The notes under the pieces are model-generated. The model was not told the origin of the DNA and made no database searches. It was given only the letters and a program-made list of their open reading frames with translations. Shown one piece after another: positions 3,694 to 28,342 of a DNA stretch of 64,000 nt; positions within the stretch are counted from its first letter, which is position 1; each line of letters begins with the position of its first letter. The DNA comes from Okeania sp. KiyG1 (GTDB lineage: Bacteria; Cyanobacteriota; Cyanobacteriia; Cyanobacteriales; Microcoleaceae), in contig NZ_BLZO01000013.1 in NCBI RefSeq assembly GCF_014132355.1, positions 1 through 64,000 of the forward strand, read 5' to 3'. Both the position numbers and the translations under genes were made by a program.

Positions 3694-3918
3694 CTAACTA
3701 GCCTGATGTTGTGAAAAAAACCGCACCGCTTCTCTGATTAACTCATTTTTTGTGCAACCTCTACGCTTTGCTTCTACGACCACCCATTCATCCAAATCTA
3801 CAGGTAATCTAACACCCAAAGTACCAGCTAAAGGTGTGTGATTAGGACTGGCAAATTTACCCTTATTTCTGGTCTTAGCTACTGTCTCATATCCTATATT
3901 TTTAGTCTTTGTGGCCAT
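3694..3918 (-). CDS. Ribbon-helix-helix (CopG/Arc-like) DNA-binding protein
   Basis: The C-terminal 45 residues match the ribbon-helix-helix fold. A short beta-strand (LGVRLPVDLDEWV) is followed by two helices (EAKRRGCTKNELIREAVRFF). This is the usual layout of plasmid and toxin-antitoxin autorepressors. I choose the ATG at 3918 over the ATG at 3933, because a perfect AGGAGG lies five bases upstream of 3918 and falls inside the longer version. The basic N-terminal tail (about 28 residues) may add DNA contacts. The gene is divergent from the 4171 gene. Matching 14-bp repeats sit in both promoters, pointing to autoregulation and control of the neighbour. Confidence 0.8.
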   Translation of the reverse strand: MATKTKNIGYETVAKTRNKGKFASPNHTPLAGTLGVRLPVDLDEWVVVEAKRRGCTKNELIREAVRFFSQHQAS

Positions 3919-3946
3919 ACCTTCCTCCTGCATTATCTACATTTTT

Positions 3947-4170: not shown

Positions 4171-5853
4171 ATGTTACTGAAATCCCAAACAATTATCAAG
4201 CAAGAAGAGTTGGTCTCTATCTTAGAAGCTCAACTCAAGAAAGCAAAATCCAGACTGACTGAGTTAACAAAAGCTGATACCAAGATTAAGTCAGTTGTTG
4301 CAGAACTAGAATCATTACTGACTGAGCATCCAGATTACAAACTGCTGGTAAGCGATCGCCTCGCACAACTCCAGCCTACTCCAGAACCGACACTAGCACC
4401 AGTAAGAATTGAGATTGAGTCTATTGAATCTGTGGATGAGTTGGAGAAAGCAGCAAAACAGGCAAAAGCAGGCATTTTTCCAGATCCAGAAACCCCCGCC
4501 CCTACTCCTTACACTCCTGTTTATGCTCCTGTAGAAATTCCTCTAACTCCACGAACAGAAGAAGATAAAATTTTAAACCCTACCGATATAGGCGTAGAGG
4601 AACAAGAAGAAAAAATTGTTACTGATTCCGACAAAAAAATAGAAAATACTCCCGACCCTAGCGAAACTTCATACTCATCATGGGATTCTGAACATGAGCA
4701 GGTACAATCCGTAGTATTGCCGATTCAATCCGACGACGAAGAAGAAAAAATTGCTCTGGTTGAAAAAGTATTGTCAGAACTGGATACTTTTGAATTTTCA
4801 AAGACCCGAGGCATTCCCAAGATAGCTATGTACATAGAAATTAAAGGCAAATCTTTAGGGATGATTTTTACCGACAAAGGTAATCTGTTAAGCACTATCG
4901 AGCTTGAAGAAAACTTGATTAGGACTTACGCATTAGATTTGCCTTTACTCCTAAAGGATGTGAACGAAGGTAAATCTATCACTCTTGATAATTATTGCTT
5001 ATCTAAAAAATCAGAAGTAGGCAAAGTTCAGCAGCAAAACAAGCCTACAGCTAAGGCTACTGTCGAAACTTTAAAAGCTGCTGATGTTGAGCAAGTAGAA
5101 GATGAGTCAATGGTTCAAAAACCTGAACCCACGCTCTCGCAACTGAAGCAACAATTGTTGAGCAAAAAGAACAAATCAGAATTAGAGGAATTTAAAGCAT
5201 CTATAGGTGCACCTATGGCTCTTGAGATTTGGGAAAGCTGCACCCATGCCGAGCGGAATCTCATAAAGTGCATCAACGTCGTCGCGGATTCCAAGCGAGC
5301 TGCCTTACCCTTTGACTTAGTTGGTTGGCACAACGCTCTAGGAAAGCTAGAAATTGCCCGGTATGTAGGTTTTTACTTATATGGCAAGCAAGTAGAGGAT
5401 TCCAAGCGGGTTATCTACTTAGTAAAGCATGACACATTCAAGATAGTAGATAAGCGATCGCTTAAAGGAGTAGATGCAAAGTCTCAAAAACCTTGCCCGA
5501 CTGACCTTGTGATTAAGTTAGAAGCTGCATTAGAAGCACAACCAGAACCAGAGCAACCTACAGCCCAGGAAATAGCCAATAATAACTTCACAGGACTAGG
5601 TCCCGCCAAAAATGCTCAAAGTGGCTCACCCACTGGAAAACTGGCAGAGGAGCCAGCATCCAAACCAAGCGTAGAAGCAGGCGACATCATTGAAGTACAT
5701 ACCAAAGACAGCATCGCTAACGGTAAAACTGTTGAGGTTAATTTCGTCAAAGAAGATGGGACAGTACACGTTGTCTGGGATGGTAAAAATGTATATATTC
5801 CAGCAAGCGGATACACGATATTTTCCAAAGGACTGAACCTAAAAAAAATATAA
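4171..5853 (+). CDS. Large acidic plasmid-type protein of unknown function
   Basis: This 560-residue protein has three visible zones. An N-terminal coiled-coil-like segment covers about residues 5-75. A long Pro/Glu/Thr-rich disordered middle covers about 75-190. More structured, well-packed segments follow after 200 and again at about 335-435 (for example MALEIWESCTHAERNLIKC). A C-terminal SH3-like strand region (about 505-555, GDIIEVHTKD...VHVVWDG) ends it. I recognise no enzyme motif. Promoter, operator and ribosome-binding site are all strong, so it is well expressed and probably controlled by the adjacent repressor. An A8 tract overlaps its last codons, and the -1 frame runs on into the 5907 gene. 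Some protein may therefore be made as a fusion of about 850 residues. Confidence 0.75.
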   Translation: MLLKSQTIIKQEELVSILEAQLKKAKSRLTELTKADTKIKSVVAELESLLTEHPDYKLLVSDRLAQLQPTPEPTLAPVRIEIESIESVDELEKAAKQAKAGIFPDPETPAPTPYTPVYAPVEIPLTPRTEEDKILNPTDIGVEEQEEKIVTDSDKKIENTPDPSETSYSSWDSEHEQVQSVVLPIQSDDEEEKIALVEKVLSELDTFEFSKTRGIPKIAMYIEIKGKSLGMIFTDKGNLLSTIELEENLIRTYALDLPLLLKDVNEGKSITLDNYCLSKKSEVGKVQQQNKPTAKATVETLKAADVEQVEDESMVQKPEPTLSQLKQQLLSKKNKSELEEFKASIGAPMALEIWESCTHAERNLIKCINVVADSKRAALPFDLVGWHNALGKLEIARYVGFYLYGKQVEDSKRVIYLVKHDTFKIVDKRSLKGVDAKSQKPCPTDLVIKLEAALEAQPEPEQPTAQEIANNNFTGLGPAKNAQSGSPTGKLAEEPASKPSVEAGDIIEVHTKDSIANGKTVEVNFVKEDGTVHVVWDGKNVYIPASGYTIFSKGLNLKKI

Positions 5854-5915
5854 AGTCATCCGAGGCGTGTAATAATTCCGCCTCCTCCCTAGACGGGGCG
5901 GATACCTTGGATGAC
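5841..5915 (+). promoter_or_regulatory. Candidate programmed -1 frameshift signal
   Basis: Codons CTA AAA AAA ATA TAA carry an in-phase A AAA AAA heptamer at 5841-5847, one codon before the stop. After a 7-nt spacer comes a stem, 5855-5865 (GTCATCCGAGG) with 5905-5915 (CCTTGGATGAC), 10 of 11 paired. An inner CCGCC/GGCGG stem lies inside it. The -1 frame is open from here straight into the next gene. The 3' arm of the stem also contains the TTG that would otherwise be the start of that gene. Confidence 0.55.
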
Positions 5916-6734
5916 TACATTCCAGATGATTTTGACTTTAGCTTTTTGTACGATGATGATGATCCAAGCTGGTTAGACAAAATAAAAGTTGAGATTGAAC
6001 AATTAGAAGGGTTTCGAGTCGAACATAACGAATTGATTCTAAAGGTTTGGCATTATGGGACTGAGGTAGGGGCTTGTCATCATCTCGGTAGCTATCTAAA
6101 CATCACACCCACACTGATAAACGAACTGGCAAAGTATGATTTAGAGCTAGAAAGGTTTATGTGTGATGAGGATATTTACTACCAGCTCATCAAACCAAAA
6201 CACATCTTACATCCAAAAATCAGACCAGACCTGCATCTTAGTATCCAGTGGTCAAAAGATTTACACCCCAATTACGGGTACATCAACGGGCATTATTTTG
6301 GATACCACCGGAATGATTACCACGGTAAATATATCCAATTAGTATATCGTCACCAGATTTATATGTCCTTCTCTTGTACTACTCCAGACCATATAAAGCC
6401 GTATTTTGATAAGATTTGGCAGGAGCTCTTGGATACTGAATATATACGTCATCCCAAGGAAATCAGGATAGGCTCAAAGGTAGCAAATTACTTACCGGAT
6501 GGTTTTAAAGCCTATAAAACTGATGATGATGGTCAGTGCAAAGTATCTCGAAGTAAGGAAAAGTATTGCTACATAAAGCGTTTGCGTGACAATGAATATT
6601 ACACCAGCTTTTCTATCAATTGGGCGCTACACCCTTCTGAGAAAACTAGCAGTTTGACTGAAGCAGTGGGAGCAGCTTTAAGGATGATAGCAAAAATGTC
6701 AACAAAAACGCCCCTATCCATTAAAAATCAATAG
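5907..6734 (+). CDS. Acidic protein with an HYGTxVG domain, unknown function
   Basis: This 275-residue product starts DDYIPDDFDFSF and then has a run of Asp. Its first 100 residues (PSWLDKIKVEIEQLEGF...HYGTEVGACHH...INELAKYDLELE) are clearly homologous to the protein at 27665-28342. The only start codon in frame is TTG 5907, buried in a stem, and the frame is open upstream back to 5787. It may therefore be expressed mainly as a -1 frameshift extension of the 4171 product. The C-terminal half has many Tyr and Trp residues and no known motif. There is no signal peptide or membrane segment. Confidence 0.65.
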   Translation: MDDYIPDDFDFSFLYDDDDPSWLDKIKVEIEQLEGFRVEHNELILKVWHYGTEVGACHHLGSYLNITPTLINELAKYDLELERFMCDEDIYYQLIKPKHILHPKIRPDLHLSIQWSKDLHPNYGYINGHYFGYHRNDYHGKYIQLVYRHQIYMSFSCTTPDHIKPYFDKIWQELLDTEYIRHPKEIRIGSKVANYLPDGFKAYKTDDDGQCKVSRSKEKYCYIKRLRDNEYYTSFSINWALHPSEKTSSLTEAVGAALRMIAKMSTKTPLSIKNQ

Positions 6735-6753: not shown

Positions 6754-7390
6754 ATGACAACAACACTTAATGTATTCGGAACTAAGCCAGAAAATGCAAT
6801 TCTAGTTGCAGACGACATTCCCAACCTTCGCTGTAACTGTCAAGAGGGTCAGTGGAAGCTCGGAGAAGAGGCTCTAGGTAATAAATTAGAATGTAGCATC
6901 CTTAAATTCTCCAAGTGGTTTGGCACTCTTGGCCAAACAAAAGATACACTTTGGGGACAGATATTTATGATTGCAGAGAACTCCGGAACTAGCCCTGATA
7001 TATTCCGGGAGTGCCTTATGGTTACATATCAAAAAACACGATCGCCCTCGTAGCTTCTTAAATTTAGTAACCAAATTACAATGTCAAGGGGTCGAAGCTG
7101 CTGAGGGAGTATTTATCGCCTCTTTCAAAAAACACTCCGGGCAAAAACCCGATGATACCGGAGTTGTTAAGCCTATCAACTATTACTCAATAGAGTGGAC
7201 CTGGCGAAAACGGACAAAGGAAGACAATTCCATAGAACAGCTTTGTGCAACATTGAACGATTCTGGCAAATTTGTCGATCCTCAAAGTACTGGCAAGATG
7301 CAGTGCTTGGATGGCCTGTCTGCCCCTGATCTCCAGCACATTATCAGCGTCCGACAGCAAGATAAATTATTAGCCGGGACTGACTTCTAG
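6754..7390 (+). CDS. Unknown protein split by a frame change at an A6 tract
   Basis: The ATG at 6754 opens a frame that ends at 7053. The reading continues naturally in the +1 frame (HDRPRSFLNLVTKLQ) to the stop at 7390. The switch is at the A6 tract 7031-7036. Joined, the product is about 212 residues, with an N-terminal half containing a Cys pair (LRCNCQEGQW) and a C-terminal half ending in a charged tail. I do not recognise the family. It could be a frameshift mutation, a sequencing error or slippage. The preceding gene ends 19 bp upstream, so they are likely cotranscribed. Confidence 0.5.
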
Positions 7391-27664: not shown

Positions 27665-28342
27665 TCAAAATACGTTTTCTTCGTTGTCGTTTGATTTGGG
27701 AGAGTCTGGTTTTTTTCCAGTCTCTAAACCAGCCTGGGGCTTTTTTACCTCCAACTCTCCTTGCTCTGAGCTAGAAGATTGAGTACGATCACCGGATGAT
27801 TTTGGTCTGAGGTGATAGAACTTATAAGGGATTTCAGCGCTGACTAAAAATGCTTCTAAGTAAAAGTCGTATTTTGCCAGTTCACCAATTAATTTTTGTT
27901 CTATTTCTAGTTCGTATTCTTCACCGTGGTGAATACTTCCTACGACTGTACCGTAGTGAGTTACGGTGAGGTCTACATCATCATGTGTCACTTTGAAGCC
28001 TTCAAGTTTTTCGACTTGAGCTTTGATGACATCCATCCAGGTAGGATCGTCGTCATCTGCTTCACTGAAGAAGTTAAAGTCGTCTTCTTCCTCAACTGTA
28101 GGTTCATTTGCTACAAGTGTATTGCTATCAACAAACTTCTCTTCACTTGGTTTCAGAAATTGTTGATTTTTCACATCATTCAGTTTGTTCCAAGCAGGAG
28201 AGCAATAGAAAAGTTCACTGAGTAGTCGTTCGGCAATTTCAAACTCTTTATCGTCCCAATTTTCTTTGGTAATTGTAGCGACCAGCAATCTTATTGCCCT
28301 CGACCAGCAATAACGAACTTTTTGAGCCAAGATTAACTGCAA
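27665..28342 (-). pseudogene. Gene with HYGTxVG domain, 5' end replaced by a mobile element
   Basis: From about residue 25 the protein reads TKENWDDKEFEIAERLLSE, then DDFNFFSEADDDDPTWMDVIK...HYGTVVGSIHH...IGELAKYDFYLE. This is homologous to the N-terminal part of the 5907 protein. Its first 23 codons (28274-28342) lie in the end of the Tn7-like mini-element (start TTG 28342 in a subterminal repeat), so the natural start was lost. A chimeric protein is possible. The C-terminus after about residue 180 is Ser/Lys-rich and variable. Confidence 0.55.

What the first reader, a model, noticed from the sequence alone, without database searches (positions are those of the whole stretch)
5841..5915. 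Candidate programmed -1 frameshift joining two plasmid genes
The 4171 gene ends CTA AAA AAA ATA TAA. It has a canonical in-phase A AAA AAA heptamer, a stop codon two codons later, and a 7-nt spacer to an 11-bp stem with an inner CCGCC/GGCGG stem. The -1 frame is open directly into the 275-residue 5907 protein, whose only start is a TTG buried in that stem. Heptamer, spacer and stem is the layout of known -1 frameshift sites. A fusion of about 850 residues is predicted.
Basis: partly seen in the sequence, partly recalled or inferred. Interest (0 to 1): 0.75.

Follow-up and report, generated by a model that had tools for sequence, protein, structure and literature searches.

The report
Conserved frameshift signal joining two genes
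A short stretch of plasmid-like cyanobacterial DNA very probably makes some ribosomes slip back one base, so that one message gives both a short protein and a longer fused one, and the same signal recurs with matched changes in related copies.

Summary
The reading as a programmed -1 ribosomal frameshift is strongly supported by comparison; no fusion protein was observed. Gene A (4171-5853) ends in an in-phase A AAA AAA heptamer. Six nucleotides later comes a 12-bp stem with an 8-bp inner hairpin (z -6.3), and the -1 frame is open through gene B. I read 17 A-B pairs in 6 genomes: five of one genus (four match Okeania MAG records) and one of another genus. In 17 of 17, B is in the -1 frame and A ends with an X XXY YYZ heptamer 0-1 codon before its stop. 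The heptamer varies (A AAA AAA 10, C CCA AAG 4, C CCA AAA 2, A AAA AAG 1). The stem arms co-vary: 98 of 99 outer-stem cells pair, and 0 of 2000 arm swaps reach that. No ATG precedes the conserved B domain in 17 of 17, and no ATG/GTG/TTG in 8 of 17, yet B is under purifying selection. Single-ORF relatives carry A-type and B-type modules in one chain. New member of a known kind; the function of the proteins is unknown.

The parts
4171..5853 (+). gene A, 560 aa, ends at TAA 5851-5853
   Evidence: ORF; matches in 8 of 62 genomes of the family; no Pfam match above its cut-off, none in NCBIfam
5841..5847 (+). in-phase slippery heptamer A AAA AAA
   Evidence: replaced by other X XXY YYZ heptamers in relatives
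5848..5853 (+). 6-nt spacer holding codon ATA and the 0-frame stop TAA
   Evidence: spacer 5-7 nt in 15 of 15 junctions measured
5854..5865 (+). 5' arm of the outer stem
   Evidence: covariation
5877..5884 (+). 5' arm of the inner hairpin
   Evidence: covariation
5895..5902 (+). 3' arm of the inner hairpin
   Evidence: covariation
5905..5916 (+). 3' arm of the outer stem; contains the TTG at 5907
   Evidence: covariation
5847..6734 (+). gene B, read after the -1 shift (295 codons plus stop; the -1 frame is open from 5787)
   Evidence: protein alignment; purifying selection

Best explanation
5841-5916 is a programmed -1 ribosomal frameshift signal. Shown by sequence: an in-phase X XXY YYZ heptamer, a stop 0-1 codon later, a stem starting 5-7 nt after the heptamer, and a B frame at -1, all conserved across relatives with compensatory changes. 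Inferred: ribosomes read gene A to the heptamer and meet the stem. Many then stop at TAA and release the short protein A (560 aa). A fraction slip back one base with both tRNAs re-pairing, pass the stop in the new frame, unwind the stem and make the 854-residue A-B fusion. The mRNA of the stem itself encodes the disordered linker between the two parts. B is thus probably made only, or mainly, as the C-terminal part of the fusion, at a ratio to A set by the shift efficiency, which is not known.
For: Layout. In 17 of 17 A-B pairs read, B is in the -1 frame and the heptamer lies 0-1 codon before the A stop. Heptamers: A AAA AAA 10, C CCA AAG 4, C CCA AAA 2, A AAA AAG 1; all four fall in the class V_VV.A_AA.R that PMC4066793 lists among the most efficient in E. 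coli (passages). Spacer 5-7 nt in 15 of 15 measured. Outer stem: 98 of 99 cells paired over 9 distinct arm pairs, 8 of 11 pairs with changes on both sides; arm-swap mean 74 of 99, 0 of 2000 reaching 98. Both helices: 98.9% paired, 23 cells with both sides changed against a shuffle mean of 8.9, slid registers 37-55%. In 5 of 17 pairs an upstream -1-frame stop confines the switch to the stretch from 6 nt before the heptamer to the A stop. No ATG precedes the conserved B domain in 17 of 17, and no ATG/GTG/TTG in 8 of 17. dN/dS of B is 0.12-0.26 in the 30 of 66 pairs (12 of the 17 B genes) with unsaturated dS. A single-ORF relative (L116) holds an A-type N-terminus (E 4e-12) and a B-type domain (E 1e-26) in one frame.
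Against: No protein or reporter evidence. The 17 pairs are relatives of one family and fall into about four sequence groups, so they are not 17 independent events. Two of three arm-swap measures (columns changed on both sides, pair types) do not exceed the control (708 and 672 of 2000 swaps reach them), and pair types do not exceed the shuffles (403 of 500). TTG codons lie before the B domain in the six window-clade members, L027 and L058, and a GTG in L028, so weak separate initiation cannot be excluded there. Efficiencies are known to me only for E. coli. An SD-like AAGG upstream of the heptamer is present only in the six window-clade members. A relatives without B were not all examined by eye; one (L041) keeps the heptamer but has lost most of B.
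Confidence: 0.93

Rival explanations
1. RNA polymerase slips on the A run (programmed transcriptional realignment), giving mixed mRNAs, some of which encode the fusion.
For: The window has A8, and ten of the 17 pairs have an A7 or A8 tract; long A runs are used this way in other genes (PMC3711429, section 19 part 1).
Against: 6 of 17 pairs use C CCA AAG or C CCA AAA, with only three or four A, and L027 has A6 then G. A covarying stem at a ribosomal spacing and a stop 0-1 codon after the heptamer fit ribosomes better than polymerase.
Confidence: 0.03
2. B is translated separately, by re-initiation or coupling at a TTG after the A stop.
For: TTG 5907 lies 53 nt beyond the A stop codon in the window; TTG or GTG codons precede the B domain in 9 of 17 pairs.
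Against: The window TTG is inside the stem; no ATG, GTG or TTG precedes the B domain in 8 of 17 pairs and no ATG in any of 17; the conserved heptamer would be unexplained.
Confidence: 0.03
3. A decayed or mis-assembled single gene: a frameshift mutation or sequencing error in a homopolymer.
For: The run is A8, and nearby gene C is frame-broken in the window. MAG assemblies are involved.
Against: 17 pairs in 6 genomes keep the same -1 relation with different sequences; between the run and the end of the stem the window and its paralogue differ by substitutions, not length; B is under purifying selection.
Confidence: 0.01

Closest known systems
Bacterial -1 programmed ribosomal frameshifting of IS3-family orfA-orfB (A AAA AAG plus stem or pseudoknot)
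   Same: In-phase heptamer, downstream structure, fusion of two ORFs in 0 and -1 frames (family details partly recalled; IS3 use of frameshifting seen in passages of PMC5009743)
   Different: A and B match no transposase family above cut-off in Pfam, although two other proteins of the window do; the slippery heptamer varies among relatives here
E. coli dnaX (A AAA AAG, hairpin, upstream SD)
   Same: Heptamer of L027 and a downstream hairpin (passages of PMC3711429)
   Different: In dnaX the shift gives the shorter product; here it leads past a stop to a longer one, and an SD-like motif is seen only in the window clade
Phage tail assembly chaperones G/GT
   Same: -1 shift near the end of the first ORF to make an extended product (passages of PMC5009743)
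   Different: No PHROGs match for A or B; no tail gene among the 15 of 24 other window ORFs of 150 aa or more that were scanned with Pfam
Frameshifted magnesium chelatase family (PMC3711429)
   Same: Two adjacent ORFs with a -1 shift at an A run, and relatives that are single-ORF fusions
   Different: Different protein family; here a covarying stem and several heptamers
Carboxysome CsoS2 (-1 frameshifting giving two protein forms; gene name and detail recalled, heading and passage of PMC5009743 seen)
   Same: A cellular, non-transposon, non-phage gene that uses a -1 frameshift to make two products of one gene
   Different: Unrelated protein by name and setting (no direct comparison was run); here the gene pair lies on plasmid-like contigs

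Membership tests
-1 programmed ribosomal frameshifting (X XXY YYZ plus stimulator) | in-phase X XXY YYZ heptamer at the frame switch | tested here: met
   17 of 17 A-B pairs
-1 programmed ribosomal frameshifting (X XXY YYZ plus stimulator) | downstream RNA structure a few nt after the heptamer, supported by covariation | tested here: met
   spacer 5-7 nt in 15 of 15 measured; covariation
-1 programmed ribosomal frameshifting (X XXY YYZ plus stimulator) | second ORF in the -1 frame, conserved as protein and without its own good start | tested here: met
   but TTG or GTG codons precede the B domain in 9 of 17
-1 programmed ribosomal frameshifting (X XXY YYZ plus stimulator) | fusion product made, dependent on heptamer and stem | not testable with these tools
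   needs reporter or mass spectrometry
programmed transcriptional realignment | long A or T run at the site in all members | tested here: not met
   7 of 17 pairs lack a run of 7 or more A
IS3-type transposase orfA-orfB | transposase domain in the product | tested here: not met
   no Pfam family above cut-off for A or B; the 13 A members of A8 likewise give only hits at E 0.068 or weaker
phage tail assembly chaperone G/GT | neighbouring tape measure and tail genes, chaperone family match | tested here: inconclusive
   no PHROGs match for A, B or gene C; 9 of 24 other window ORFs of 150 aa or more, among them the 2125- and 3500-aa ones, were not scanned

The most novel reading that the evidence does not exclude
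The stimulator is a switch. The segment at the inner end of the outer 5' arm (x) can pair with the middle arm (y) instead of y pairing with z. The x:y pairing is kept in 93.3% of cells and exceeds its shuffles on three of five measures, and it opens the inner end of the outer stem. Frameshifting, and so the A to A-B ratio, would then be regulated by choice of fold, perhaps by binding of A or A-B to its own message.
Probability: 0.1. Interest if true: 0.75.

Novelty: new member of a known kind. Interest (0 to 1): 0.55.

Why it matters
The -1 frameshift genes known in bacteria are mostly transposases, phage tail genes and a few cellular genes such as dnaX and carboxysome CsoS2 (recalled; the passages seen of PMC5009743 and PMC3711429 agree). 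Here is a family outside these, with several copies in some genomes, on contigs of Okeania of which the window at least is plasmid-like. Its members have different slippery heptamers and stems re-made by compensatory change, a natural mutation series for asking which parts of a frameshift signal are needed. It also shows two genes that annotation would probably split and that are probably one gene with two products.

Tried and rejected
Protein searches of A and B in the plasmid collection and of A in the phage collection gave nothing. B in viral contigs gave nothing. B in 195 genomes drawn from the order found only the own genome. B as an alignment in 386 phylum genomes found the own genome and one doubtful match at E 5e-4 with stops inside.

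The RNA model found 17 matches in 62 family genomes: 16 at A-B junctions and one weak one (L105, E 0.0093) that I set aside as chance because it is not at an A-B pair. The model missed the L027 cassette, so it may miss others.

Another heptamer-stop site in the scan, L059 (A AAA AAT then TGA), has no comparable stem and sits at a different gene; I did not count it.

A relatives without B (for example L038, L043, L044, L048, L049, L051) were included in the scan, where they gave no site, but I did not read their ends one by one.

The first DNA alignment of the paralogue used the wrong strand and was replaced. MAFFT alignments A3, A4 and A6 misplaced the 3' arm in part of the rows and were not used for counts.

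Full report
What is there. The window is part of contig G000:C13 of an 11-Mb genome. The window carries a tyrosine-recombinase-type integrase, an HTH/IrrE-type protein, a Prim-Pol primase, a ResIII-type helicase and transposases, so it is plasmid-like; I did not prove that it is a plasmid. Gene A (4171-5853, 560 aa) ends CTA AAA AAA ATA TAA. The -1 frame is open from 5787 to 6734 and encodes B. The RNA after the heptamer folds into a 12-bp stem with an inner 8-bp hairpin, -33.3 kcal/mol, z -6.3, 0 of 200 shuffles as stable.

Relatives. Protein B occurs in 5 of 6 genomes of the genus and in 8 of 62 genomes of the family, against 1 of 195 drawn from the order and 2 of 386 drawn from the phylum, one of the two doubtful. 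Of the 8, G239 holds only a remnant and G240 only the domain inside a long ORF. I read the junction of 15 loci first and added two more in which B is interrupted (L039/L096; L058). That makes 17 A-B pairs in 6 genomes: G000 2, G196 3, G197 6, G198 4, G199 1, G203 1. G203 belongs to another genus of the family. For one of the two interrupted genes both pieces lie on one contig (G198:C79) with a group II intron match beside the 3' piece; for the other the pieces lie at the ends of two contigs, and their connection is inferred.

The frame relation and the heptamer. In 17 of 17 pairs B is in the -1 frame of A, and an in-phase X XXY YYZ heptamer lies directly before the A stop (3 pairs) or one codon before it (14 pairs). 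The heptamers are A AAA AAA (10), C CCA AAG (4), C CCA AAA (2) and A AAA AAG (1). In five pairs (L062, L066, L067, L032, L039) the -1 frame opens only 6 nt before the heptamer, so the switch must take place within a few codons around it. As a background, in the window 4 of 52 ORFs of at least 100 codons have any such heptamer 0-2 codons before the stop, and 3 of these 4 are followed by at most 50 open codons in the -1 frame. A scan of the window and the 68 loci then in hand, requiring long frames on both sides, gave 12 distinct A-B sites and one other.

The stem. The first paired base follows a spacer of 5-7 nt after the heptamer in 15 of 15 junctions measured. Over 9 distinct arm pairs, 98 of 99 outer-stem cells are standard pairs and 8 of 11 pairs show changes on both sides. 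Exchanging 3' arms between sequences gives 74 of 99 on average, and 0 of 2000 swaps reach 98; the counts of changed columns and of pair types do not exceed this control (708 and 672 of 2000 swaps reach them). In shuffled downstream sequence 91 of 3000 trials reach 10 or 11 of 11 pairs at a spacer of 5-7. On ten aligned rows both helices give 98.9% paired cells, 8 pairs with both sides changed (1 of 500 shuffles as high) and a covariation score of 0.457 against 0.274 (0 of 500); the number of pair types does not exceed the shuffles (403 of 500); slid registers give at most 55% paired. That alignment was padded by hand to keep arms in register, so it leans to this structure. L027 and L028 were left out of it because their inner pairing is different; L065, L067 and L026 repeat or nearly repeat rows that are in it; L039 and L058 were added later. 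The rows fall into about four groups, so independent changes are fewer than the counts suggest.

B is a protein-coding part without a proper start. The B alignment has 15 rows, the others 44-99% identical to the window row. dN/dS is 0.12-0.26 in the 30 of 66 pairs, among 12 of the 17 B genes, whose dS is not saturated. No pair has an ATG before the conserved B domain, and 8 of 17 have no ATG, GTG or TTG there; the six window-clade members, L027 and L058 have TTG codons and L028 a GTG (the script's domain pattern missed L028, which I read by eye; in L066 and L067, whose B has lost about 105 residues with its first repeat, I counted from the remaining part). Residues 1-35 of the B model, which the stem region and the stretch after it encode, are predicted with low confidence, as a flexible linker would be.

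Single-ORF relatives. Long ORFs of 1031-1263 aa in G196, G198, G199 and G240 (L116, L117, L119, L118) hold both an A-type N-terminus and a B-type domain in one frame. The two matches were measured for L116 only: E 4e-12 for A and E 1e-26 for B; the A-type part of L118 was recognised by eye. L116 and L117 carry a Dam-type DNA adenine methyltransferase, PF05869; L118 and L119 were not scanned. So A-type and B-type modules occur in one chain elsewhere. The function of A and B stays open: profile libraries give no family, and fold searches only weak hits (see Tried and rejected).

Where the signal is used. A covariance model of the signal found 16 A-B sites and one weak other site in 62 genomes. 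Within the reach of that model, which missed one true site, the signal is tied to this gene pair and is not a roaming element.

Mechanism. The best reading is tandem slippage at the heptamer stimulated by the stem. Transcriptional slippage is unlikely, because 7 of 17 pairs lack a run of 7 or more A. In E. coli, C_CCA_AAG, G_GGA_AAG and A_AAA_AAG were the most efficient motifs, with up to 54% for C_CCA_AAG with the IS3 pseudoknot, and V_VV.A_AA.R, which covers all four heptamers here, is listed among the efficient classes (PMC4066793, passages). An A_AAA_AAA cassette of a magnesium chelatase gene gave 10% in E. coli (PMC3711429, section 19 part 1). I do not know the efficiency in Okeania. An SD-like AAGG starting 13 nt before the heptamer occurs in the six window-clade members only, so it is not a general part of the signal.

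A possible second layer. Segment x (columns 22-27 of A7) can pair with y instead of z. This x:y helix is 93.3% paired with 11 cells changed on both sides (shuffle mean 4.4, 1 of 500 as high). Two of its five measures do not exceed the shuffles (361 and 500 of 500), and the register slid by +3 also scores fairly high (68.3% paired). By energy x:y is favoured or equal in L027, L028 and L068, costs 5-7 kcal/mol in the window, L002, L064, L040 and L058, and 12-15 kcal/mol in L062, L066 and L032. As x shares bases with the outer stem, part of the covariation may be borrowed. I rate a regulated switch as possible, not shown.

Literature. A full-text search for Okeania with frameshift found 0 papers. 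Searches for programmed frameshifting with cyanobacteria and plasmid (24 papers, 15 listed), Okeania with plasmid (16, 15 listed), ribosomal frameshifting with Trichodesmium (3) and general bacterial cases (27, 15 listed; 13, 10 listed) listed no paper that, by title and start of abstract, treats this family. I read passages of PMC5009743, PMC4066793 and PMC3711429, and part 1 of section 19 of the last; supplements were not read. Absence from print is therefore only as wide as these searches.

Verdict.

Noticed in passing
window 6754-7390: The gene after B is one open frame of about 211 aa in L060, L061, L064 and L065 but is frame-broken in the window copy. No family match for the L060 copy.
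   Followed up: partly
L058/L091 (G198:C79); L039/L096 and L085 (G198:C64, C76): One B gene of genome G198 is split with a group II intron match beside its 3' piece on the same contig; a second appears split the same way across two contig ends. The 5' pieces keep the frameshift cassette.
   Followed up: partly
window 27665-28342 (-): A 225-aa ORF with a B-type domain looks like a truncated piece of the long methyltransferase-bearing relatives; it has no Pfam match itself.
   Followed up: partly
L006, L007, L008 against L005: Copies of the long relatives in the own genome differ in the length of an A run, so that the first ORF is only 96 aa; no such stem cassette is seen there. Could be a real indel or an assembly matter.
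   Followed up: no
L041 (G239): An A relative keeps C CCA AAA GCA TAA but most of B is missing; only a short B-like remnant follows.
   Followed up: partly
L066, L067: B lacks about 105 residues including its first repeat while cassette and -1 frame are intact.
   Followed up: no
window 3694-3933 (-) and L002 3376-3627: A small divergent gene that looks like a ribbon-helix-helix regulator (recalled likeness, not searched) lies upstream of A in both copies of the own genome.
   Followed up: no
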